Source: Myxococcaceae bacterium
GTDB lineage: Bacteria; Myxococcota; Myxococcia; Myxococcales; Myxococcaceae
DNA length: 51,840 bases
Assembly: GCA_025459425.1 (NCBI GenBank)
Contig: JALOQF010000006.1
Coordinates: forward strand, 1 to 51,840
Reading direction: 5' to 3'
The notes below the pieces were generated by a model. It was not told where the DNA came from and ran no database searches. It saw only the letters and a list, made by a program, of their open reading frames with translations. Each line of letters opens with the position of its first letter. Position 1 is the first letter of the stretch. Position numbers and translations under genes: made by a program. Shown piece by piece: positions 1,060-31,623 of this stretch.

Positions 1060-2235
1060 TCAGGGGTCTGGTGTCACCACCGACACGCCCGGGGCCAGCG
1101 TGTCGGCGTTCGCTTGAGTGAGCAGCTCGAGCGAGCCTGGGCTGCCGCGCAGCGTCGCGTTGAAGAGCGCGACGGCGAAGTGGTTCATGAGCGGCTGGGC
1201 CACCGCGGCGCTCGGAGCCGGCGGCGCGCAGCCATCGCTCAACACGCTGCGCACGTTCGCGCCGGGGATGTCGAGGCGAATGTTGTCACTCACCGCGGCG
1301 AGGTCGAACGCGCAGATGTCGGAGAAGGTGAAGTGCCCGCCCTCGGTGATGTCGAGCAGCCAGCGCGGCTTCTGCATCGCGGCCCAGGTGGGCGCGACGT
1401 GCTCGTCCCACTTGAGCGTGCGGTCCTTCCGCGCGCCCTGAATCATCACCGGAATGCCGAGGTTCGGCCGGCCCAGGTCGACGAAGAAGAGGTCGGTCGA
1501 CGGAGGCGCCTGCGGGACGATGACCTTCACGCGCTTGTCGATGGCCGCCACGCGCAACGAGGTGAGCGCGCCGAAGCTGTGGCCGGTGACGCCCACCTTC
1601 TCGGCGTCGACGAGGCCGTAGAGCGGGTCGCTCTCGGGCAGGCGCTGGTACGCGGTGATGAGGTACTGCACGTCGGCGGGCCGGGTGGCGATGCCGATGC
1701 CCACGTCCTGCAGTTGGTTGCGCACCGCGTAGTCGAGCGTGCCGCCTTCGTGATCCGGGGACACCACCACGTACCCGTGCGAGGCGAGCAGCACCGTGTA
1801 GAACGTCGACTGCCAGCGGATCGCGCCCTGGCCGTGGCTGAAGACGATGAGCGGGAACGGGCCGTGCGTCTTCGCAGGCGGCGCGTCGCGCACCGCCGGC
1901 GTCTCGAGCAGGGGCACGCCTCCGGCCGCCACCAGCATGGCGCGCTGCTCGTCGGTGAAGCGCTCCTTGATGTCGTAGCTGACGGTGGGCTGGCCCTTCG
2001 TGTCCTGCGTCGCCGGGTACCAGATCTCGGTCACCAGCAGCCGGGGTGTGCCGTCGGGCTTGGGGCGCCGCCGGTCTTCGTAGGTGACGGTGCGCACGCC
2101 CACCTGGAACGGGCCGAGCGCAGCGGGGTTCGGGGCCGCCGTTGGGCCCGCCGGCGCGAAGGGGAGGGGATCGACCGGCGCGGGCGTGCCGCAGCCGACG
2201 ACGACCAACAGCCCGAGCAGGCAGGCACCGCGCAT
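1060..2235 (-). CDS. lipoprotein alpha/beta hydrolase (PAF-acetylhydrolase / dienelactone-hydrolase-like)
   Basis: Predicted lipid-anchored hydrolase of 391 residues. It opens with a short hydrophobic signal ending in the lipobox VVVGC. The body shows FSHGQG (oxyanion region), the nucleophile elbow GHSFGA, and a late GGHFTF that can supply the catalytic His. This arrangement is typical of PAF-acetylhydrolase and polyester-hydrolase relatives. The start ATG overlaps the stop of the upstream nucleotidase-like gene by one base (TGATG), so the two are translationally coupled and both products are envelope lipoproteins. The substrate is unknown. A longer reading frame extends upstream but has no signal peptide and overlaps the neighbour, so it was not used. 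Confidence 0.82.
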   Translation of the reverse strand: MRGACLLGLLVVVGCGTPAPVDPLPFAPAGPTAAPNPAALGPFQVGVRTVTYEDRRRPKPDGTPRLLVTEIWYPATQDTKGQPTVSYDIKERFTDEQRAMLVAAGGVPLLETPAVRDAPPAKTHGPFPLIVFSHGQGAIRWQSTFYTVLLASHGYVVVSPDHEGGTLDYAVRNQLQDVGIGIATRPADVQYLITAYQRLPESDPLYGLVDAEKVGVTGHSFGALTSLRVAAIDKRVKVIVPQAPPSTDLFFVDLGRPNLGIPVMIQGARKDRTLKWDEHVAPTWAAMQKPRWLLDITEGGHFTFSDICAFDLAAVSDNIRLDIPGANVRSVLSDGCAPPAPSAAVAQPLMNHFAVALFNATLRGSPGSLELLTQANADTLAPGVSVVTPDP

Positions 2236-3770
2236 CACTTCGCCCCCAGCAGGCCCTCGAGGGGCCGCTTCTCGTCCGACTTCTTCGCGGCCGTCCACTC
2301 GATGAGCGCGGCCTGCCACGACGTCTTCGTCTCGAGGGGCGCGGGGTCGGCCTTGTTGAGCGCGAAGCCATCGCCGCCGAGGTACAGGTAGTCCGTCGTC
2401 GCCACCGAGTACGTCTTCTTCGGGTCGATGGCCGTGCCCTTCGCGTCGACCCACCCGTCGCCTTTGGGCTTCACTCCGGCGACGCGCGCTTCGGTGTTGC
2501 CAAGCGCCGTCAGCAGCGCCTCGCCCGTCAGCTTCACCACCACCACCTGGTTGTCGAACGGCACCAGGTCGTACACCGAGGCCTTCGTCACCGGGCCCGG
2601 CGGGAGCGCCTGGCGCACGCCCTTGCGGTTGAGGAGCGCGACGTCGGCCTGGAACTGCTCCTTGAGCGCCGTCGTCAGCCACTGCGTCATCTCCTTCGAC
2701 TCCTGGCCCAGGCCGGCCTTCGTGAAGCCGATGGTGCCGCCGAGCGCGTCGTCGAGCTTCTTCTTCCACCCATCGACGAGCGCCTTCGCCTGCGGCTCTG
2801 CGGCCGGCGCGCCGTCGCCGCCCACCACCTCGACGGTCGACACCGCGCTCGTCACCTGCACGGGCGTCGACGAGAGCGTCACCGTCACGGCCACCTTCGC
2901 GTACGACGACCAACGGCTGCCCGGGTACACCAGGCGCGTGCCGCCCACCGAGTCGGGGAACGGGCCGTCGCACCGCCGCCCGGCGAAGAAGGTGAGGCCG
3001 AAGTCGGCGTGCTTCTCGAGAATGGCCGGCGCGTCGTTGAGGCAGCCGTCGCTCACCACGCCGATGACGTGGGGGTTCGCCTTCTTCACCTCGGCGAGCA
3101 CCTCGGTGAGGGCCGCGGTCTCGTCGACCGCCTCGAGCCCCTTCATGCGGCCGGGCATCGGCGTCACGGTGGCCTTGCGCGCAGCCAGCCCGATGATGGC
3201 CACCGTCACGCCCTTGCGTGACAGCACCCGGAAGTGCCCGAGGCCGAGCGCCTTGCCGTCGTCGTCCTTCGCCGCGAGGTTGGCCGCGAGGTACGGAAAG
3301 CCCGCGCGGGTGCGGTTGGCGACGAACTGGTCACGGCTCCAGTCGAGCTCGCGGTTGCCCAGCGCCGAGGCGGCGTAGCCCATCTGCCGCATCAGCTCTG
3401 CCGTCGGCTCGCCCTTGAAGAAGCTCGAGATGGCCTGGCCGTTGGCGTTGTCTCCGGTCGACGCCACGATGGTGCTGGCGTCCCTGCAGGGCGCGTCGCC
3501 GTTGGGCAGTAGCGGGCCGGGGCAGTGGCCTTCCTTCGCGACCCACCACCCGAGCACTTCGGCCGCGCCGCCGCGCGAGGTGCCCCCCTCGGTGACGGGC
3601 AGCAGGTACCCGTTCTCGGCGCCGGTGATGAGAATCGACACCGTCTCCTGCTTGAGCGTCTTCGCGTCGACGGGCGCGGCGGCGTGGGGTTCTCCATCGG
3701 GCGCCTGCTTCTTGTCGGGGCAGGCGAGCAGCGGCAGAGCAGCGAGCAGGGCGAGGGCGCGACGCGTCAT
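2235..3770 (-). CDS. 5'-nucleotidase/UshA-like lipoprotein with degenerate metal site
   Basis: 511-residue lipoprotein (LLAC17 lipobox) with the two-domain layout of UshA/5'-nucleotidases. The N-terminal calcineurin-like metallophosphoesterase domain covers roughly residues 43-300. The C-terminal substrate-specificity domain holds VYDLVPFDNQVVVVKLTG. STGDNANGQ (Asp107) and GN139 are retained. However, the canonical GNHE is GNRE (His to Arg140), the first DxH metal motif is absent (ITGAENG), and the later His motifs read VVSDGC and AGRRCDG. It is therefore probably a binding protein or an altered enzyme rather than a normal nucleotidase. It is coupled to the downstream lipoprotein hydrolase. 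The ATG at 3770 is preferred over one at 3788 because the signal peptide then starts MTRR. Confidence 0.8.
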   Translation of the reverse strand: MTRRALALLAALPLLACPDKKQAPDGEPHAAAPVDAKTLKQETVSILITGAENGYLLPVTEGGTSRGGAAEVLGWWVAKEGHCPGPLLPNGDAPCRDASTIVASTGDNANGQAISSFFKGEPTAELMRQMGYAASALGNRELDWSRDQFVANRTRAGFPYLAANLAAKDDDGKALGLGHFRVLSRKGVTVAIIGLAARKATVTPMPGRMKGLEAVDETAALTEVLAEVKKANPHVIGVVSDGCLNDAPAILEKHADFGLTFFAGRRCDGPFPDSVGGTRLVYPGSRWSSYAKVAVTVTLSSTPVQVTSAVSTVEVVGGDGAPAAEPQAKALVDGWKKKLDDALGGTIGFTKAGLGQESKEMTQWLTTALKEQFQADVALLNRKGVRQALPPGPVTKASVYDLVPFDNQVVVVKLTGEALLTALGNTEARVAGVKPKGDGWVDAKGTAIDPKKTYSVATTDYLYLGGDGFALNKADPAPLETKTSWQAALIEWTAAKKSDEKRPLEGLLGAK

Positions 3771-3820
3771 GGCGGCGGTCGATAGCACGCGGCCCGCGCA
3801 ACGGGCATCATCGCTCGCCC

Positions 3821-4504
3821 ATGGGCGGCCTCTACCTCGCGCTGTCGTGCCTCCAGGGCCGGCCGATGCGGCAGGCCTTCGACACGCTCGCCGCGCTGGG
3901 CGTCGGCGTGCAGCTCACGCCGGGCAATGAGCCGACGCCGGGGTTCGCCCAGCACGTGGCCGCCAGCGGCATCCCCACGCGCACGCACCACGGGTTCGTC
4001 TTCGAGCGCCGCGCCGGGAAGGTCTGGTCGGACGAGGGCGCGTGTCTGGCCGCGTCCGACAGCGTGCACCCGCCACGTCACGACAGCCCGGCGGCGAGTC
4101 ACTTCGCGCGCTGGCTCGAGGCGAACGCGCAGGCGAAGGTGCTCGAGACGATGTACCCGGGCTACTGCCTCGGCGCTGGAGCCGCCCTCGAGCAGGCGCT
4201 GTCGCTCGCGGTGCCGCTGGCCGTCGACGTCTCGCACCTCTTCATCCAGCGCACGGCCGGGGTCCTGACGGAAGGCACGCTGCGCCGGGTGCTCGACTCG
4301 CCGAACGTCGTCGAGGTGCACGTGTCTCAGAACGACGGCCGCCACGACTCGCATCGCCCGCTGCGCCGCGACAGCTTCGAGCTTGGCTGGGCCCGCGAGC
4401 GGCTCTCGAGTGGGCTGCCGGTCATCTACGAGGCGTACCTGCATCTCCTCTCCGACGACGCGCGGCGTGCGCAGCTCGAACTCGTCCGGCAGGCGCTCGC
4501 GTGA
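3821..4504 (+). CDS. TIM-barrel sugar isomerase/AP-endonuclease-2-like protein
   Basis: 227-residue soluble protein. The alternating hydrophobic strands, the segment VEVHVSQNDGRHDSH (about residues 165-179) and a late EAYLH resemble the metal-binding strands of xylose-isomerase-like / AP endonuclease 2 TIM barrels. Closely spaced His, Asp and Glu residues suggest a divalent-metal site. It is short for the family, which is usually 250-300 residues. It overlaps the next gene by four bases (GTGA), so the two products probably act together. It diverges from the nucleotidase-like gene across a 50-base gap. No specific reaction can be assigned. Confidence 0.65.
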   Translation: MGGLYLALSCLQGRPMRQAFDTLAALGVGVQLTPGNEPTPGFAQHVAASGIPTRTHHGFVFERRAGKVWSDEGACLAASDSVHPPRHDSPAASHFARWLEANAQAKVLETMYPGYCLGAGAALEQALSLAVPLAVDVSHLFIQRTAGVLTEGTLRRVLDSPNVVEVHVSQNDGRHDSHRPLRRDSFELGWARERLSSGLPVIYEAYLHLLSDDARRAQLELVRQALA

Positions 4505-9531: not shown

Positions 9532-10628
9532 GCCACGCCCCGCCGCGTGACGCGCCACAGGAGCAACAGCCCCACCGCGAAGAAGAGCAGGTTCGGCAGC
9601 TGGCCCGACAGCCATGGCGGGAACTCTCCGCGCTCGGCGAACTGCGAGGCGGTGCGCCACGACAGGTAGAACGCGAGGTAGGCGCCGATGGTGAAGAAGA
9701 AGCTCCAGCCGCGCGCGCCCCGGCGTCGCGACAGGGCCAGCGGCGTTCCCAGCACCGCGAAGGCGAGCGGCATGAAGACCTGCCCGAGGCGCCAGTGGAG
9801 CGTCACCTCGGCGGTCAGGTTCACCTCGTTGCGCGCGCGCGCCGCGTCCCGGGCCTCGAGCACGTCGAAGAGCGTCTGCTCCTCACGGTTCGAGCGGAAG
9901 TTGTTCTTGCGGAAGAACGTCTCGCCGACGTCGGCGCGGAAGTCGGCACGCGAGAAGGTGACGAGCGAGTACTCCTCGGTGTCACGCCGCGCCTGGTGCA
10001 GGCTGCCGTCTTCGAGCACGAAGGCGATGGTCTCGAGCACCTCGGAGTTCTGCACCGTGCCGCGCCGCCCGAAGGCCAGTTGCGGGTTGTTCGGGTCGCG
10101 CCCGTCGAAGAGAAAGACGTTGGTCCACTTGCCGCCGGCCTCGACGCCCTGGGCGTAGAGCGTGAGATCGCGCAGCTCGTCGTGGAAGACGCCGGGCTTC
10201 ACGTCGCTGACGAGGTTGCGGCGGATGATGTCGTGGGCCACCTGCCGCAGCGTGCGCATGCCCCAGGGTTGGGCCGTGTTTGCCAGCACCCCGAGCACCA
10301 CCGACAGCACCGCGCCGAGGAGCAGCGGGCCCCGCACGAACTCGAAGGGCGAGATGCCGAGCGCCTGCATCGCCACCACCTCGCGGTCCTCGGACAGGCG
10401 GCCGAGGCCCAGGAGAATCGCGAGCAGCAGCGCGACGGGAATGCCCTGCACGAGGAACTGCGGCAACAGCGCGAGGGTGAAGCGACCGACGTCCCACGCG
10501 GTGACGGCGCTGCCGAGGAGGAAGTCGGTGCTCCGCAGGAAGGCCATCACGAAGAAGATGACGCACAAGAGCCCGACCCAGCCGAGGAACGGCCCGAGCA
10601 CCTCGCGGAACAGGTAGCGGCGCAGCAT
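9528..10628 (-). CDS. lptF: LptF-like LPS export permease
   Basis: 366-residue partner of the neighbouring permease. The ATG at 10628 gives MLRRYLFREVLGPFLGW, the usual N-terminus of the family. Six membrane segments are visible, three on each side of a periplasmic domain, together with the coupling-helix motif EDREVVAMQALGISPFEF and the C-terminal helix cluster GTPLALSRRRGARGW. With the lptG-like gene and a separately encoded LptB ATPase it should transport LPS to the LptC/A bridge. It is divergent from an ATPase gene of very different composition across a 152-base region. Confidence 0.85.
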   Translation of the reverse strand: MLRRYLFREVLGPFLGWVGLLCVIFFVMAFLRSTDFLLGSAVTAWDVGRFTLALLPQFLVQGIPVALLLAILLGLGRLSEDREVVAMQALGISPFEFVRGPLLLGAVLSVVLGVLANTAQPWGMRTLRQVAHDIIRRNLVSDVKPGVFHDELRDLTLYAQGVEAGGKWTNVFLFDGRDPNNPQLAFGRRGTVQNSEVLETIAFVLEDGSLHQARRDTEEYSLVTFSRADFRADVGETFFRKNNFRSNREEQTLFDVLEARDAARARNEVNLTAEVTLHWRLGQVFMPLAFAVLGTPLALSRRRGARGWSFFFTIGAYLAFYLSWRTASQFAERGEFPPWLSGQLPNLLFFAVGLLLLWRVTRRGVA

Positions 10629-10752
10629 CGGAAGGCAGGGGTCGATATCGCACGTGGCCCTGGCGCTGTCATGGCGCTGGTGACGGGCGTTCACGCAGCA
10701 GGCCAGTCACGAACAACGGCACAGCTCCTGCGGCCACGGGACTTCTTGCTCG

Positions 10753-10769
10753 ATCACAGCGCCTGTGAT
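10753..10769. promoter_or_regulatory. perfect palindrome upstream of ATPase gene (candidate operator)
   Basis: Seven-base perfect arms ATCACAG / CTGTGAT are separated by CGC. The palindrome ends 11 bases before the ATG of the ATPase at 10781, so it overlaps or abuts the ribosome-binding region. It could be a protein-binding operator or an RNA hairpin controlling translation of the module. Confidence 0.45.
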
Positions 10770-10780
10770 GCGGTCGAGAC

Positions 10781-11932
10781 ATGAAGCACCTCAGCGAGTT
10801 CGAGGTTCGTTCGTTCAGAAATGTTCGGCAGACCACGCTCAAGTTTCGGCCTGGCATCAACGTGGTGCTCGGGAAGAACGCCGCCGGGAAGACGACGCTC
10901 CTGAAGCTCTTGGCAGATTCTATCCGGCTCTTTCCGGCTCCCCAGGACGAGCTGAGTACGCGCCATGTCCTGACGGACGGAACGCAGACATTGCGCCGAG
11001 AGACGAAGGCAACCGCGAGGAAGAGCTTCGACCGAAACCGGCCGTTGGAGTTCAGCACCGTTGACCGATTCGAGGCGGAGTTCTCCGAGGGGAACTTCAG
11101 CGCCTTGGTCGGGGATGGCGTGCTCGAGATCGACGGCAAGCCGCAGCCCATGATGGCGCCGGGGGACTTCCCGCTATCCAGGCTCGTGCGCGAACTCAGG
11201 TCGCGCTCTCCGGAACTCTTGATGCACTTCTTTTCGTTCCAGCCTGACACTCGGCGTTTGGACGAATCGCTCGACTACTTGAATGAGCTTCTGGCGTTCT
11301 CTCAGACGAGGAAGAAGGGCTCGCCGACAGAGAGCAGCATGTGGCTTGGTCTCCCGGCCAGTTTCCAGGACTTCAACATTCAGAACGACTCTCAGGTGGG
11401 GCCCTTTTTCAGCGCACCATTCCTGGACCGGGTCGCGGCCGTGATGGGCTACCAGCATGCGCAGTGCCGTGTCGACGTCGACAGCAAGACAACGGGCGGC
11501 ACTGTCGAAACCCGATACTACAACCTTCGGTTCGCATTTCGCGCCGGTCAGGACTCCTTCACCCACGCCAGCCTTTCGTACGGCGAGAAACGCTTGCTTG
11601 CCTTCTTCGCGATGAGCGACGCCTGCCCGGACATCGTCATTGCAGATGAACTGGTGAACGGCCTCCACCACGATTGGATTCGTGCCTGCATCGAAGAGAT
11701 TGGCAAACGGCAGGCCTTCCTCACGAGCCAGAACCCGCTTCTTCTCGATTACATGGAGTTCGAATCAGTCTCCGACGTTCAGCACGGCTTCGTCCTCTGC
11801 GAGCGTTCAGTGGGGCGTGGGGAGTTGGTCTGGCGCAACCCGACCGAGGACGAAGCCAGAGAGTTCTTCAGCGCCTACGAGACGGGCATTCAGACCGTCT
11901 CCGAGATCCTCATCGCAAAGGGGTTCTGGTGA
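10781..11932 (+). CDS. AAA/ABC-type ATPase, module 1 (candidate defence gene)
   Basis: 383-residue RecF/OLD-like ATPase. Residues 1-40 hold the N-terminal strand pair and the Walker A motif GKNAAGKT (31-38). The ABC signature appears as SYGEK near 266, and Walker B as DIVIADE near 284-290, followed by NGLHHDW. The usual H-switch (TTHSP) is replaced by TSQNP. The protein is soluble, with no other recognisable domain, and is short for the OLD family because there is no fused TOPRIM. That function is probably supplied by the next gene, which overlaps by 4 bases (GTGA). Base composition is visibly less GC-rich than in neighbouring genes, suggesting acquisition. The ATG at 10781 is supported by the N-terminal motif layout. 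Confidence 0.8.
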   Translation: MKHLSEFEVRSFRNVRQTTLKFRPGINVVLGKNAAGKTTLLKLLADSIRLFPAPQDELSTRHVLTDGTQTLRRETKATARKSFDRNRPLEFSTVDRFEAEFSEGNFSALVGDGVLEIDGKPQPMMAPGDFPLSRLVRELRSRSPELLMHFFSFQPDTRRLDESLDYLNELLAFSQTRKKGSPTESSMWLGLPASFQDFNIQNDSQVGPFFSAPFLDRVAAVMGYQHAQCRVDVDSKTTGGTVETRYYNLRFAFRAGQDSFTHASLSYGEKRLLAFFAMSDACPDIVIADELVNGLHHDWIRACIEEIGKRQAFLTSQNPLLLDYMEFESVSDVQHGFVLCERSVGRGELVWRNPTEDEAREFFSAYETGIQTVSEILIAKGFW

Positions 11933-12693
11933 CTGCGAGGTTCCTGCTCCTGTCCGAAGACTCAGGAAAGCAGGCGCAGCCGACGATTCGTTCGCTGATG
12001 ACCGCGGCCGCCAAGCTCTTGAAGCCCAATCTCGACACCCGGCTCCTCGAACTTCGGCCGCTTGCAGAGGGTGATCTGGCGGCGAACGCACTTCGCGCGA
12101 ACGCCTGGAAGCAACGCCGGCTCAGCCCCGAGAAGGCGGCGCTGATTCGCACCATTGCCAACGAACTCGAGCAACGCCGTTTCGTCGTTCTCCATTTCGA
12201 CAGTGACACGACCTGGTCGAAGCGAAGGACGAGCGAGAACCGCATCAAGTTTGCCAATCAGCTGCGGGCCGACGTCAGGCTGACGCTCACGACGCCGCGG
12301 GCGAACCCGAAGTTCGTACCGCTCTCGACCGAGGCGGCGGACGAGCGAATGAGCCGGTTTTTCGCGATGTCGCCCTGCTACTCGATCGAAGCCTGGCTGT
12401 ACCAAGCGAACGACGCCTTGCGGAGCTTCTGCCGCGAGCGCCACGAGAAGCGGACCCATCTCGTCCTGATTGAGAGGTGGAAGTCCGATCGAGCGCTCCT
12501 TGATGAGGTCGATCGGCCCAAGGACGATGAGTTCTCGGACTGCGTTGGCGATCGACACAACGCGGAGCTCGCCGCGGCTTTCCCTGCGGCAGAGGTATTC
12601 GCTGTGGAGAAGTCCTGGCATGAGTTCGTCGAGGTGCTTCGCCAGTCAGGACCTCTGCGCGCGGCTCTTGGCCTCGACGACACGTCGTTCTGA
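11929..12693 (+). CDS. TOPRIM-like partner protein, module 1 (candidate effector nuclease)
   Basis: 254-residue soluble protein starting at a GTG inside the ATPase stop. It contains SED at residues 9-11 after a hydrophobic strand, a second strand ending HFDSD (Asp91, Asp93), and YSIEAWL with Glu154. This E...DxD...ExW order resembles TOPRIM-like and DUF4276/RloB-like proteins, which accompany OLD-type ATPases in phage-defence loci. A C-terminal charged region includes DRHNAEL and KSWHEF. No exact family is claimed. The partner of module 2 carries the same three motifs. Predicted role: metal-dependent nuclease or RNA-cleaving toxin controlled by the ATPase. Confidence 0.7.
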   Translation: MTARFLLLSEDSGKQAQPTIRSLMTAAAKLLKPNLDTRLLELRPLAEGDLAANALRANAWKQRRLSPEKAALIRTIANELEQRRFVVLHFDSDTTWSKRRTSENRIKFANQLRADVRLTLTTPRANPKFVPLSTEAADERMSRFFAMSPCYSIEAWLYQANDALRSFCRERHEKRTHLVLIERWKSDRALLDEVDRPKDDEFSDCVGDRHNAELAAAFPAAEVFAVEKSWHEFVEVLRQSGPLRAALGLDDTSF

Positions 12694-12886
12694 GCCGGTC
12701 GAGGGCATGATCGCTCCCGAGGGAGCCCCGGAGGGCATTCGACTTCCTGCCGACTGCCGACCCGCTTCTTCAGCCTGCATCGGTCGACGCGAGCAGGCCC
12801 TGGCTCTCGTGACACCTGACCACTGCGCGAAGTCGCACACGTCGGGATGACCGACGGCTCGCGATGTCGTGGCCATGTCGAGGCCG

Positions 12887-13312
12887 TCACTGTCGCGCGC
12901 GCCGGCCGACCTCCTTCACCTTGTTCACGAGCCCCAGCATCACCTGCCGCTGCAGGGCGGGCTGGCTGCGCAGCGCTGCGTGGAGGTCGCGGGTCGACAG
13001 GCGCAGCACCTCGCACGACGTCTCACAGAGGGCGTCGGCGCTGCGGGGCTCTTCCGCGAGCGCGCCGAGCTCACCGAAACACTCGGGCTGGGCGACGCGG
13101 CTCAGGGTGGTCCCGCCGTCGCGAATCGCCACGGTGCCCCGCGCCACGACGAAGAGCGCGTCAGAGGGGTCTCCGGCACGGAACACGGCGGCGCCCTTGT
13201 CGAACGAGCGCTCCGTGACGAGGCGCGCGAGCTGGGCCACGTCGCCCTCGGGCAGCCCGTGAAAGAAGGCGCACCGCGCCAACAGCGCCGCGCGCTCGTC
13301 GAGCGTCGTCAT
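12887..13312 (-). CDS. stand-alone cyclic nucleotide-binding domain protein
   Basis: 141-residue protein made of a single cNMP-binding (Crp-type) beta-roll. Recognisable segments are FFHGLPEGDVAQLA, GAAVFRAGDPSDALFVVARGTV and the phosphate-binding-cassette region CFGELGALAEEPRSADA, where FGE and RSA match the family. There is no helix-turn-helix after the roll, so it is unlikely to be a transcription factor by itself. The ATG overlaps the stop of the upstream gene (ATGA), so the two are coupled. Possible role: a cAMP or c-di-GMP sensing subunit of another protein. Confidence 0.78.
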   Translation of the reverse strand: MTTLDERAALLARCAFFHGLPEGDVAQLARLVTERSFDKGAAVFRAGDPSDALFVVARGTVAIRDGGTTLSRVAQPECFGELGALAEEPRSADALCETSCEVLRLSTRDLHAALRSQPALQRQVMLGLVNKVKEVGRRARQ

Positions 13313-14706
13313 GGCACCCCCGCGTCGCTGGCCGAGGCAGGCTTCGGCGAGAGCGCCCAGGTGAGTTGCCCGCGCAGCCCCGCGGTCGAGCCGTCGAGCC
13401 ACCCGCGCACCCGCTGCGTCAGGCCGAGCAACGGGCCGAGCTCGGTCGCTGCCACCAGCACCGCCGACAGCTCCGGTGATTGCACCACCTCGAGGAGCGG
13501 CACCGCCGCCAACGCCCGCGAGAGCGCCTGCGGGTCGACGTCGAACTCGGCCCCGTGCTTCTGCGCGCCGCTGGCCTTGCCGAGCGCGCCGAGCACCGCG
13601 TCACGAGACTCGGGCTCGTTCGAGAGCCACACCACGCCGTCGCGGGCGCCCGCCTCGAGGGTGCCTTCCCGGAAGGTGAGCGCCTTGCCGTCGAGCCTGG
13701 CGATGGCCGCCGAGGCCCCTGCGGCGTCCGCCGTCTCGGCGACCAGCGTGAAGCGGGCGGCGAAGAAGCGCGCGGTGGGCGTGCGGAGCCCCGAGGTGAC
13801 CTTCACCCGCGAGAAGACGAGCGCGACGTTGCCCGTCAGCGTCGGCGCCAGCTGCTGCCCGGCGGCCTTGAGCGTCGCCGCGCCCGGCAGCTGCGCGAGC
13901 ACCTGGTCGACCAGCGCTGGCACCTGCCGCTTCGACACGCGCAGGCGCAGCACGAGCACACCCGGCACCGAGAGCGCGCCGAAGGGTGACGGGCCCGCGC
14001 CGTCGAACGACGCGACCGGCAGCCCCTTCGCCTTGACGTCGACCGTCAGGGCCTCGCCCTTCGCGTTGAGCGCCGCGGCGGCCCAGCCCTGCAGCCGCGC
14101 GCCTTCGGGGACCAGGAAGTACTGCGCCGCCGGCAGCTCGCCCGCGGCCTTCACCCACGGGCCACCCAGCGGCTTGCCCGAAAGGGCCTTCACCACGTCG
14201 GGGAGCTGCTTCTCGACGGTCTGCCCCGCCGCGTGCACCGCGCAGGCTTCCTTCCCCTTCCACACCACCGCGCCTTGCACCCGGTTGAGCGCGTCGCGCG
14301 AGAGGAGCGTCGTGACGCCGCCGCGCTCCTCCTTCGTCACCGGGCCGTAGCGGTCGAGGCGCGCACGGCACGCGGCCTCGAACACCTTCAGGTCGCTCAC
14401 GCCGTGACAGGCGACCGACACGGGCCCGCGCGTCGACAGGGCCAGCCCCTGCGTGACGTCGATGCCCACGGCCGTGGCCGACTCGGGCCGCGTCACGTCG
14501 AAGGGCACGAGCGGGTGCGCGCTCTCACGCCACGAGGCCGGCGCCAGCATCACCGAGCCCTCACCGGCCCGCGTGAAGAAGGGCAGCAGCGTGCCAACCT
14601 CCGACAGCTTCGGCGCCCAGGTGACGAGCTCGGCGTCGGCGAGCCCCTTCGGCGCACCGCCCATCACGAGCGCGGTGACGAGTTCGATGACCATGCACCC
14701 GCTCAT
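13309..14706 (-). CDS. hypothetical protein, 465 residues
   Basis: Unrecognised. It begins with a moderately hydrophobic segment (VIELVTALVMGGAPKG) that could be a weak signal. The rest is a long Ala/Leu/Val-rich body of alternating strands and helices. Only two Cys are visible, near residues 99 and 112, within VACHGVSDLKVFEAACRARL, and another in GKEACAV. The C-terminus ends in a Ser/Ala/Pro tail. An ATG at 14694 is an equally possible start. It is translationally coupled to the downstream cNMP-binding protein, which suggests that protein regulates or assists it. The overall feel is like large secreted myxobacterial proteins related to DUF3352, but this is not secure. Confidence 0.6.
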   Translation of the reverse strand: MSGCMVIELVTALVMGGAPKGLADAELVTWAPKLSEVGTLLPFFTRAGEGSVMLAPASWRESAHPLVPFDVTRPESATAVGIDVTQGLALSTRGPVSVACHGVSDLKVFEAACRARLDRYGPVTKEERGGVTTLLSRDALNRVQGAVVWKGKEACAVHAAGQTVEKQLPDVVKALSGKPLGGPWVKAAGELPAAQYFLVPEGARLQGWAAAALNAKGEALTVDVKAKGLPVASFDGAGPSPFGALSVPGVLVLRLRVSKRQVPALVDQVLAQLPGAATLKAAGQQLAPTLTGNVALVFSRVKVTSGLRTPTARFFAARFTLVAETADAAGASAAIARLDGKALTFREGTLEAGARDGVVWLSNEPESRDAVLGALGKASGAQKHGAEFDVDPQALSRALAAVPLLEVVQSPELSAVLVAATELGPLLGLTQRVRGWLDGSTAGLRGQLTWALSPKPASASDAGVP

Positions 14707-29854: not shown

Positions 29855-30508
29855 TCACGCAGGTGGCGGCGGCGTCCAGCCAAGCACCGCTCGATGGGCT
29901 CGGATCAGCTCGTCACGGAACCAGGCGAACGAGGGGCTCTCGGTCGTCAGTCGAGGAATGTCTGCGTTCTGAACGATCGTTTTCCCACGTTCGATCATCA
30001 GCTCTCGCGTCGGGCGCTCCTCGCGCCACAGGGCAAACTTCAGCGCACGGCGCTCCGCACTGTTTCGGCCGTAGACGAGGGAACTCTCGTTTCTGGGGAA
30101 GGTTCCGGTCGCGACGAGCAGCCACGTCTCGAGCATTCGAACCGGGACGCCGATGACACACTGGAGCGGCGGGAGCATCGGGCGCTCCCAGGCGAGCACG
30201 GTGGCGACATCGGCGGCGCGAGCAAGCTCGCAATGCCTGCAGCCGCGCGCTGGTTGGCCGACGTGGCCCTTGTCATGCGGGAGCGTCTCGTCGCAGTCGA
30301 TGACGAGGACGGCGCCGTGCGCGTCGGAGTTGAAGACGTTGCGAACCACTTTTGGCGCAAGTGCGAGGGCTTTGCTCCACCCGCCCTGCCGCGACGGCAG
30401 CGCCGCAGGGAGGTTGGCCGTCTCGACCGGCTCGCCGACACAACGCTCGACCAACGCGTGGAGGATGACGATGTCAGTTCGATCTTCGCTGCAGAAGGCG
30501 AGCTTCAC
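29855..30508 (-). CDS. TOPRIM-like partner protein, module 2 (candidate effector nuclease)
   Basis: 217-residue soluble protein starting at a GTG that overlaps the ATPase stop (GTGA). It has CSEDRTD (Ser7-Glu8-Asp9) after the first strand, VLVIDCDE (Asp71, Asp73, Glu74) and VRMLETWLL (Glu127). It also has a CRHC pair at 90-93 not seen in module 1. The Glu...DxD...ExW order is that of TOPRIM-like or DUF4276/RloB-like partners of OLD-type ATPases. A metal-dependent nuclease activity is inferred, not shown. Base composition is less GC-rich than in the flanking housekeeping genes. Confidence 0.68.
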   Translation of the reverse strand: MKLAFCSEDRTDIVILHALVERCVGEPVETANLPAALPSRQGGWSKALALAPKVVRNVFNSDAHGAVLVIDCDETLPHDKGHVGQPARGCRHCELARAADVATVLAWERPMLPPLQCVIGVPVRMLETWLLVATGTFPRNESSLVYGRNSAERRALKFALWREERPTRELMIERGKTIVQNADIPRLTTESPSFAWFRDELIRAHRAVLGWTPPPPA

Positions 30509-31623
30509 GGCGTCGGAACGCCTCCGAGAACTCCGGAGTACCAGAGGTCTCCGAGCTGCACGTCACGGAGCTGCTCTTCGATGTTCGGCATGTCACTCAG
30601 GCGCTTGGCGACCGTGCCCCTGTCACCCCTGTCGACGATCAATACGGACTCCGGGAAATCCCGGAATGCGTTCAGCAGAACCGGAGAGTGTGTGGTGATC
30701 AGGAACTGCGTGCCCTGATTCGCGATTCGGTTGACCTGATCGATGATGTCGACGATGCGCCGGGGATGAATACCCTTGTCGGGTTCCTCCAGCGCGATGA
30801 CGGTCTTCCCGCCACTCATTTGGCTCACTGTCGTGATCGCGATGAACAGGAGGACGCCGTCTGAGACGTGCCGGGCCCGATAGGCCGTGTTTCCCTCGGC
30901 TACCCCAACGACCTTGTACCCCGGCTTGTCGTCAGGCAGCGTTACCACCGCGCTCACGGAAGGAATCGCTTGTCGGATCGCCTCATCGATCGCCGCCCGC
31001 ATGAGCGGCTTGCTCTGGAGCCCATCAAGGACTGCAGCGAGGCCGCGACCAGAAGGGTGGAGCGTTGGCAACGGAACGATCTCACTTGGTTCCCGAATGG
31101 AGTCAGCCGAAAGGTCGGCGATGATCATTCCAGACAGGAATGAGTGGAAAGCAGTGACTTCTTCCGTCGAACCCCATCGGCCCACCGCGTTGAGAAGCTC
31201 TCCCGGAGTCGATGCTCCTGGCGGGCGTTCAGCAACGCCGTTCACCTGCAACTGAGACCCCTGCGGCGTCCACCAGCACTGGATGAGACGCTTTCCATGG
31301 ACGGTCAGTGATTCCTTCGGTTGCCCTCCAGACCATGGGCCGTTCGGGCAGAACTCGTAGGTGTACTTCGAGCCGGCAAGTTCGGCCTCGATCAAGAAGC
31401 TCGGGCTCTGTCTCCGGCCGCGCGTCGTCAGTTCTTCGACACCACCGGCGGCGCTATCGGCAGCGATTGAGCCTGCTCGTGCGACGTCACTGAGGTACCC
31501 CAACGCCTTGAGGATGTTGGACTTGCCCGCGTTGTTCGGGCCGACAAGGACGGTCACCTTCGAAAGCGGTGCGTCGAAGTCGATCAGCGTCTTGAAGCCC
31601 TGCACTTTCAGGCGCGTCAGCAC
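30505..31623 (-). CDS. OLD-like AAA15 ATPase, module 2 (candidate defence gene)
   Basis: 372-residue ABC/SMC-type ATPase. Walker A is GPNNAGKS (28-35). The signature is VSDGV (253-257, Asp-Gly in place of the common SGG). Walker B is TVIALEEPD (274-282) and the H-switch is TTHSPVLL (His312). It has the layout of AAA15/OLD ATPases but lacks a fused TOPRIM domain; the adjacent coupled gene probably provides it. It is the upstream gene of a two-gene unit lying between an esterase and argC. The gap to argC holds a palindrome at 31685-31703. The pair resembles known phage-defence architecture, but its target is unknown. Confidence 0.82.
   Translation of the reverse strand: MLTRLKVQGFKTLIDFDAPLSKVTVLVGPNNAGKSNILKALGYLSDVARAGSIAADSAAGGVEELTTRGRRQSPSFLIEAELAGSKYTYEFCPNGPWSGGQPKESLTVHGKRLIQCWWTPQGSQLQVNGVAERPPGASTPGELLNAVGRWGSTEEVTAFHSFLSGMIIADLSADSIREPSEIVPLPTLHPSGRGLAAVLDGLQSKPLMRAAIDEAIRQAIPSVSAVVTLPDDKPGYKVVGVAEGNTAYRARHVSDGVLLFIAITTVSQMSGGKTVIALEEPDKGIHPRRIVDIIDQVNRIANQGTQFLITTHSPVLLNAFRDFPESVLIVDRGDRGTVAKRLSDMPNIEEQLRDVQLGDLWYSGVLGGVPTP

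What the first reader, a model, noticed from the sequence alone, without database searches (positions are those of the whole stretch)
10781..12693. Module 1: two-gene ATPase + TOPRIM-like candidate defence system
A RecF/OLD-like ATPase (GKNAAGKT, SYGEK, DIVIADE) overlaps by GTGA a 254-residue protein with the Glu10 / Asp91-x-Asp93 / Glu154-x-Trp order of TOPRIM-like nucleases. Composition is visibly less GC-rich than in the flanking lptF and cNMP-protein genes. The ATPase H-switch position is TSQNP instead of TTHSP. No exact known system fits.
Basis: partly seen in the sequence, partly recalled or inferred. Interest (0 to 1): 0.75.

Follow-up and report, generated by a model that had tools for sequence, protein, structure and literature searches.

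The report
ATPase-gated TOPRIM-like nuclease gene pair
A small two-gene unit in a soil-type bacterium pairs an ATP-powered gatekeeper with a probable nucleic-acid-cutting enzyme; it looks like a new branch of a known kind of bacterial anti-virus system, and related bacteria keep gatekeeper copies that stand without the cutter and have lost part of their own ATP-using motif.

Summary
An AAA_21 ABC-type ATPase (10781-11932) overlaps by GTGA a 254-residue protein (11929-12693). Of 39 distinct loci carrying a gene-B relative, 36 have the ATPase directly upstream. Glu10, Asp91-x-Asp93 and Glu154-x-Trp156 are invariant in 18 diverse members. A confident model (pLDDT 93.9) has TOPRIM-like strand order, and a profile comparison links gene B to DUF4276 (score 45.9; best of 60 shuffles 17.0). 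Foldseek found no significant match, so the nuclease reading remains inferred. The same-genus genome with the most similar flank lacks the segment.

Two results point to a PARIS-like gatekeeper/effector logic. All 3 gene-B copies without an ATPase are N-terminally truncated. ATPase relatives without gene B exist (60 loci read, 0 with gene B) under purifying selection; 55 of 60 carry Gly for the ABC signature Ser, which is Ser or Thr in 34 of 34 paired copies. That is about three independent events, too few for significance.

The pair is not PARIS, Gabija, classical OLD, RloB or a Pfam-threshold DUF4276. I read it as a new variant of the ABC-ATPase + TOPRIM kind, probably an abortive-infection module. 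Defence function is untested, and neighbourhood enrichment is weak.

The parts
10781..11932 (+). Gene A: AAA_21 ABC-type ATPase, 383 aa, C-terminus GFW-stop
   Evidence: Pfam PF13304 E 1.5e-14; best solved relative by profile is AriA, E 1.3e-11
10871..10894 (+). Walker A, GKNAAGKT (residues 31-38)
   Evidence: K37 is Lys in 34 of 34 paired copies
11573..11593 (+). ABC signature LSYGEKR (residues 265-271); S266 is the column that best separates paired from solitary copies
11630..11650 (+). Walker B, DIVIADE (residues 284-290)
11723..11737 (+). TSQNP at the H-loop position (residues 315-319), Gln in place of His
   Evidence: Gln in 33 of 34 paired copies
11929..12693 (+). Gene B: TOPRIM-like, distant DUF4276-related protein, 254 aa, GTG start overlapping gene A by 4 bp
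11956..11958 (+). Glu10 codon (first acidic residue of the TOPRIM-like set)
   Evidence: Invariant
12199..12207 (+). Asp91-Ser-Asp93 codons
   Evidence: D91 invariant; position 93 invariant Asp and Asp or Glu
12388..12396 (+). Glu154-Ala-Trp156 codons
   Evidence: Invariant; lines up with the DUF4276 E-x-W
10677..13318 (.). Segment absent from the same-genus genome with the most similar lptF (G002), where the flanks lie 20 bp apart; it holds genes A and B and the cNMP-binding gene 12887-13312
   Evidence: direction of change not resolved

Best explanation
An ATPase-gated, TOPRIM-type effector pair that works like PARIS. Gene A is an SMC/OLD-type ABC ATPase that binds and restrains gene B and uses ATP binding or hydrolysis to release it when infection is sensed. 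Gene B is a metal-dependent TOPRIM-like nuclease (E10, D91/D93 and probably E154 as metal ligands) that then cuts a nucleic acid, most likely host RNA such as tRNA and less likely DNA, and stops growth so the phage is lost. Shown by sequence: the pairing, the invariant residues, a confident fold model with TOPRIM-like strand order, a distant DUF4276 relationship, and patchy presence. Inferred: nuclease activity, restraint by A, the trigger, the RNA substrate, and defence itself.
For: Adjacency in 36 of 39 distinct loci, with a junction of -4 or +6 bp in 20 of 21 pairs measured and -7 in one. Invariant acidic set. Model pLDDT 93.9, pTM 0.91, strands 3-9, 40-43, 85-89 and 144-147; E10 and D91/D93 lie just after strands 1 and 3, E154 seven residues after strand 4. 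hhalign against 22 DUF4276 rows: score 45.9, probability 86.7 (global 91.3), best of 60 column shuffles 17.0, reversed 11.7. Gene A matches defence ATPases among solved structures: AriA first by profile; retron PtuA, Septu PtuA and AriA by fold, mixed with Rad50 and SMC heads. One-sided dependence: the 3 gene-B copies without an ATPase (L050, L052, L067) are N-terminally truncated, whereas a full-length ATPase frame is found beside a damaged B (L051) and with no B (L199, L200). The signature Ser is kept in paired copies (33 Ser, 1 Thr of 34) and is Gly in 55 of 60 solitary ones. Presence is patchy: 18 of 195 genomes of the phylum, 0 of 6 other same-genus genomes, and missing at this site in G002.
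Against: No experiment. Foldseek gives no match below E 0.08 for gene B, and its top hits are not TOPRIM proteins (GajA ranks 9 at E 0.23). Pfam DUF4276 scores 15.9 bits against a cut-off of 30.2. Neighbour enrichment for defence families is weak. No clear flanking repeats at this locus. Truncated B copies may simply be neutral decay. L199 is full-length but has changed motifs (S266G, E290D, H297P). The paired/solitary contrast rests on about three independent changes, on a tree whose root is not fixed, and cannot reach significance.
Confidence: 0.5

Rival explanations
1. The ATPase is an activator or DNA sensor rather than an inhibitor: A and B form an OLD- or Gabija-like complex that grips and cuts phage DNA, and neither is toxic alone.
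For: Fold similarity of A to Rad50, SMC and PtuA heads, and the ABC-TOPRIM logic of Gabija and OLD proteins (review PMC10568477: abstract, future-considerations section). Obligate pairing fits equally well.
Against: If B were inert alone, ATPase-less B copies would not need to be truncated (3 of 3), although neutral decay also explains that. The B model shows no significant match to DNA-cutting OLD TOPRIM domains.
Confidence: 0.27
2. Not defence: a selfish toxin-antitoxin-like pair, or a chromosomal RNA or DNA maintenance module, carried patchily.
For: Weak defence neighbourhood; the pair sits between housekeeping-type genes in the window; solitary ATPases are kept in repeated gene contexts under purifying selection, which suggests that the ATPase family can have a non-defence role.
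Against: Patchy distribution, lower GC, and resemblance of A to the ATPases of PARIS, Septu and retrons.
Confidence: 0.15
3. Gene B is not a TOPRIM nuclease; the E / DxD / ExW order is coincidental or serves another metal-dependent reaction.
For: No significant Foldseek match; Pfam match below the cut-off.
Against: Strict invariance of the set, the DUF4276 profile match with controls, and the strand order of the model.
Confidence: 0.08

Closest known systems
PARIS (AriA-AriB)
   Same: Separate adjacent genes for an AAA_21 ABC ATPase and a TOPRIM-type protein; AriA is the best solved profile match of gene A
   Different: No AriB or DUF4435 match for gene B in Pfam or PADLOC. The PADLOC AriA hit PDLC02980 has the same model length and nearly the same match as generic AAA_21. 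Gene B leans to DUF4276.
DUF4276 proteins (PF14103)
   Same: Profile relationship, probability 87-91, with the first Glu and E-x-W lined up
   Different: 15.9 bits against the 30.2 cut-off for the window protein; best E among 23 members only 0.0099
RloB (PF13707)
   Same: E-x-W region lines up weakly; DUF4276 and RloB match each other (probability 89.7)
   Different: Probability only 13 with 3 RloB rows; no Pfam RloB match
PADLOC candidate HEC-01
   Same: 3 of 23 gene-B members match HEC-01B, best E 1.1e-4; gene A matches HEC-01A models around its P-loop
   Different: The window's gene B does not match. I found no description of HEC-01: one search ranked no paper with that term among those shown, and PMC9252829 has no 'HEC' in its text.
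OLD proteins and Gabija GajA
   Same: ABC ATPase plus TOPRIM logic
   Different: There the two domains are one protein (PMC10568477 abstract); here they are two genes, and no UvrD-type GajB gene is next to the pair in the window
Septu and retron PtuA
   Same: Among the closest ATPase folds
   Different: Their effector is an HNH protein (titles name an HNH nuclease in the retron complex; Septu recalled); gene B is not

Membership tests
PARIS | Adjacent ABC ATPase and TOPRIM genes | tested here: met
   36 of 39 distinct gene-B loci; that gene B is a TOPRIM protein is itself inferred
PARIS | AriB-type (DUF4435, recalled) TOPRIM protein | tested here: not met
   No DUF4435 or AriB match among families listed for 23 members
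PARIS | Restraint of AriB by an AriA hexamer and release by Ocr-like triggers | not testable with these tools
   Needs biochemistry
DUF4276 (PF14103) | Score over Pfam's gathering threshold | tested here: not met
   15.9 against 30.2 bits; best E among 23 members 0.0099
DUF4276 (PF14103) | Shared profile over the whole length with the E / E-x-W positions aligned | tested here: met
   hhalign with shuffle and reverse controls for the local score; full-length alignment, for which no shuffles were run
TOPRIM superfamily | Acidic set E, DxD and a further acidic residue, invariant | tested here: met
TOPRIM superfamily | TOPRIM fold by structure comparison | tested here: inconclusive
   Strand order fits; Foldseek E 0.08 or worse; VIA-align library not available; side-chain geometry not measured
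RloB (PF13707) | Pfam RloB match | tested here: not met
   hhalign probability 13
Gabija / OLD class 1-2 | ATPase and TOPRIM fused in one protein | tested here: not met
   Two separate genes in the window and in the 21 other pairs measured
HEC-01 (PADLOC candidate) | HEC-01B match | tested here: inconclusive
   3 of 23 members, best E 1.1e-4; not the window protein
Defence-island gene | Neighbours enriched for defence families | tested here: inconclusive
   131 near genes: 56 PADLOC families at E 1e-15 or better, at most 4 genes per family; 131 control genes: 33 families, at most 2 genes per family

The most novel reading that the evidence does not exclude
The ATPase has repeatedly been turned into a solitary, ATP-cycle-dead guardian. 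Lineages of Myxococcaceae without the TOPRIM gene carry Gly in place of the ABC signature Ser, plus H297P and often K37R, yet keep the protein under purifying selection. Such locked ATPases would hold a TOPRIM effector without being able to release it: chromosomal antitoxins or anti-addiction proteins against incoming copies of this same defence pair. This would make it testable whether the ATP cycle of this ATPase class exists only to release the effector.
Probability: 0.15. Interest if true: 0.8.

Novelty: new variant of a known kind. Interest (0 to 1): 0.5.

Why it matters
ABC-ATPase + TOPRIM pairs are a recurring answer to phage, but only a few have known triggers and substrates. Gene B here is a separate sequence family, mostly myxobacterial with one copy in a planctomycete MAG, that the four profile libraries searched do not name. 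The natural set of partner-less ATPases with a changed signature Ser is an evolutionary experiment on what the ATP cycle does in such systems.

Tried and rejected
PARIS membership: rejected, because gene B matches no AriB or DUF4435 model. Gabija or OLD fusion: rejected (two genes). Plasmid and phage collections: no tblastn match to gene B in 72,556 plasmid and 50,697 phage records, nor a close relative in viral contigs (a search that reaches close relatives only). A first genome-contig scan with the single protein found nothing; the alignment found 19 loci. Fold comparison of gene B with PDB and BFVD gave nothing significant. Flanking repeats or target-site duplication: only short or imperfect matches, no convincing terminal repeat. 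No Rfam match in 10400-13400. A link to RNA repair through RtcB was considered: an RtcB gene (HGAGR motif; Pfam RtcB in 3 neighbour genes) lies beside gene B in L038, L040 and L041, which share gene context and group together in the tree, so it counts as one event; RtcB also does not seal 3'-OH/5'-P ends (recalled), the ends AriB leaves (PMC12409363). Relation to the window's second ATPase pair: not close. DUF4435 was sought in 60 related genomes and not found, so no AriB profile could be compared.

Rows dropped and limits: 131 of 192 neighbour genes were scanned and the other 61 were not; genes came from a simple caller of my own, and a few calls are doubtful (in L061 two short calls lie over gene B). 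Loci L029 and L071 gave no called pair genes and were left out of the neighbour set; L050, L052 and L067 were not in it. Many PADLOC models hit the same gene, so family counts overstate genes. For DUF4276, 22 of the 30 loci returned were used, the 8 others being partial or below the cut-off; a first extraction with wrong orientation was discarded. The 34 paired ATPases are 34 of the 36 pairs: L043 (= L060) and L069 were left out because their ATPase matches came in separate stretches. L058 and L067 were left out of A3; L060, L067 and L069 out of A4. For the solitary ATPases, 60 places that I picked from the list across lineages were read; the other weaker places listed there were not, and the tree holds 20 of the 60. 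The paired-versus-solitary contrast fails a strict test: 4 independent pairs, 1-3 in the expected direction and 0 against, which cannot reach 0.05.

Literature: no paper in the held library has both DUF4276 and ATPase. Listings showed me no title or abstract start on this pair or on solitary signature-less relatives. Papers opened: PMC10568477 (outline with abstract, one section), PMC12839542, PMC12409363, PMC10853773 and PMC9252829 (passages), PMC11455837 (whole text). The ABC-ATPase classification paper (10.1093/nar/gkaa726, known to me from recall) and the PARIS structure paper (PMC11479591) are not held, so prior description of this exact family there is not excluded.

Full report
OBSERVATION. 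The window is G000:C446, a contig of an 8.4-Mb genome. Its family includes genomes whose contigs have the same lengths as named Archangium and Corallococcus contigs, so I take it as Myxococcaceae, phylum Myxococcota. Gene A (10781-11932, 383 aa) and gene B (11929-12693, 254 aa, GTG start) overlap by 4 bp. Gene A carries Walker A GKNAAGKT, signature LSYGEKR, Walker B DIVIADE and TSQNP. GC is 0.598 and 0.627 and GC3 is 0.79 and 0.78. Neighbours have GC 0.694-0.743, and six other genes have GC3 0.87-0.95.

FAMILY SEARCHES. Gene A is AAA_21 (PF13304, E 1.5e-14), with weaker hits to many ABC-type ATPases. By profile the best solved protein is AriA of PARIS (E 1.3e-11). Below it come repeat-protein rows with no stretch passing on its own, then SMC3, PtuA-type ATPases, Rad50 and RecF. 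By fold its model (pLDDT 83.9) matches retron and Septu PtuA, Rad50 and AriA. Gene B has only a sub-threshold DUF4276 hit (E 0.016, 15.9 of 30.2 bits) and nothing in PADLOC, NCBIfam or PHROGs, and no significant PDB sequence match. Among 23 family members, 3 match PADLOC HEC-01B (best E 1.1e-4).

DISTRIBUTION AND PAIRING. Gene-B relatives were found in 18 of 195 genomes of the phylum, 26 places (a first look is), and in 0 of 6 other same-genus genomes. A profile-guided scan of genome contigs (84,980 species) gave 19 loci, one of them titled Planctomycetota and two without a stated phylum (L066, L071). An ATPase relative lies directly upstream in the window, in 23 of 25 other loci and in 12 of the 13 new ones (18 of all 19): 36 of 39. 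Of 21 pairs measured, 9 have a +6 bp gap, 11 a -4 overlap and 1 a -7 overlap. The own genome holds a second, divergent pair (L047). No relative was found in phage and plasmid records, and no close one in viral contigs.

GENE B AS TOPRIM-LIKE. E10, D11, W60, H89, D91, D93, W96, P149, E154, W156, N211, L214, S229 and L243 are invariant in 18 diverse members. The AlphaFold2 model has mean pLDDT 93.9 and pTM 0.91. Its strands are 3-9, 40-43, 85-89 and 144-147; E10 and D91/D93 follow strands 1 and 3 directly and E154 lies seven residues after strand 4, which fits a TOPRIM core (recalled). Foldseek against PDB and BFVD found nothing below E 0.08. GajA is rank 9 in PDB at E 0.23; in BFVD an RloB-like phage protein, two topoisomerases and a DnaG-type TOPRIM primase appear at E 0.5-0.9 among unrelated hits. 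An independent test supports the link. hhalign of 36 gene-B rows with 22 DUF4276 rows from related genomes gives score 45.9 and probability 86.7 (91.3 global). The best of 60 column-shuffled controls is 17.0, the reversed profile 11.7, and the ATPase family 13.2. The full-length alignment pairs E10 with the DUF4276 VEG Glu and E154-x-W156 with its E-x-W. Gene B is therefore most likely a distant member of the RloB/DUF4276-like TOPRIM group, below the Pfam threshold. Nuclease activity is inferred.

INSERTION. In G002, the same-genus genome with the most similar lptF (86-87% identity), DNA is collinear up to window 10676 and again from 13319, with 20 bp between. The 2.64-kb difference includes both genes and a cNMP-binding gene (12887-13312). 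Direction is unresolved: the best cNMP-gene relatives (G005, G006) are not beside the same neighbour within the stretch held. No convincing terminal repeats were found.

NEIGHBOURS. The 131 nearest genes called around 34 pair loci match 56 PADLOC families at E 1e-15 or better, at most 4 genes per family; 131 genes from 19 arbitrary stretches of the same genomes match 33, at most 2 genes per family. The long helicase-type neighbours (RecQ-like and NERD/UvrD-like, assigned from motif and size) sit in L043, L044 and L048, all from one genus (g26). This is weak and does not establish a defence island.

ONE-SIDED DEPENDENCE. The three gene-B copies without an ATPase (L050, L052, L067) all lack the N-terminal part that holds E10. 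Conversely L051 has an open ATPase frame beside a gene B lacking about residues 60-101 (numbering of its relative in L040), L058 has one in-frame stop in B, and L199 and L200 have a close, full-length ATPase relative and no gene B. This is what a restrained toxic effector would give. Neutral decay of a broken pair would also give it.

SOLITARY ATPASES. Searching gene A itself finds relatives in 66 of 189 genomes of the phylum. I read 60 places from that list that are not gene-B places: 0 of 60 have gene B in the stretch. Many sit in repeated gene contexts (for example beside what looks like an alpha/beta hydrolase); median dN/dS is 0.25 and the maximum 0.38 over 131 pairs. At S266 the paired copies have Ser 33 and Thr 1 of 34; the solitary ones have Gly 55 and Ser 5 of 60. 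At H297: paired His 30, Tyr 3, Pro 1; solitary Pro 56, His 4. At K37: paired Lys 34 of 34; solitary Arg 40, Lys 20. Walker B E290 is kept in 59 of 60 and the C-terminal Trp in 51 of 60. On an IQ-TREE of 54 rows (34 paired, 20 solitary; root not fixed) the paired/solitary label needs 4 changes (0 of 500 shuffles as low) and S266 needs 4, one of which is the Thr of L071; that leaves about three separate Ser-to-Gly events, all in solitary lineages. Independent pairs number only 4, so this is a consistent pattern and not a statistical proof. In ABC ATPases the signature Ser contacts ATP across the dimer (established knowledge, recalled). The simple reading is that the ATP-closed dimer is needed only when the TOPRIM partner is present, fitting a role in releasing or loading gene B.

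MECHANISM. PARIS provides the template: a hexameric ABC ATPase holds the TOPRIM toxin, releases it on sensing an anti-restriction protein, and the toxin cuts tRNA-Lys (PMC11455837, whole text; AriB leaves 3'-OH and 5'-P ends and its E26A mutant does not cut, PMC12409363, passages). A 2026 survey places PARIS and Gabija within a wider set of OLD-ABC/TOPRIM systems (PMC12839542, passages). I assign the pair to this kind, with ATP-gated release of a TOPRIM-like nuclease as the best explanation (0.5), and keep a Gabija/OLD-like DNA-cutting complex (0.27), a non-defence role (0.15) and a non-TOPRIM gene B (0.08) as rivals.

VERDICT. A real, conserved two-gene module; a new sequence variant of a known kind; defence role probable but untested. 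The most interesting by-product is the set of solitary ATPases with a changed signature Ser.

Noticed in passing
window 29855-31623 (-): A second ATPase + small-protein pair: AAA_21 ATPase 30505-31623 (E 1.7e-26, TTHSP kept) overlapping by 4 bp a 217-aa protein 29855-30508 with a sub-threshold DUF4276 hit (E 0.061) and an ETWL motif. It is not closely related to module 1 (profile probability 1.2), and GC dips there too.
   Followed up: partly
L047 (G000:C424), 1876-3878: A divergent second copy of the module-1 type pair in the same genome, with ATQHP instead of TSQNP.
   Followed up: partly
L043 / L060, between about 5466 and 6598 of L060: The ATPase gene of one Corallococcus pair matches in two pieces separated by about 1.1 kb, as if something had inserted.
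   Followed up: no
L038, L040, L041: An RtcB-type RNA ligase gene (474 codons, HGAGR motif) lies next to gene B, converging on it, in one lineage.
   Followed up: partly
window 12887-13312 (-): A small cNMP-binding-domain gene overlaps the gene before it by 4 bp and is absent from the same site in G002; its best relatives are about 50% identical and lie in two same-genus genomes, not beside the same neighbour.
   Followed up: partly
Paired ATPases, C-terminus (window residue 383): All 34 paired ATPases examined end exactly in Trp before the stop codon, and 51 of 60 solitary ones have Trp there too; role unknown, perhaps a docking tail.
   Followed up: partly
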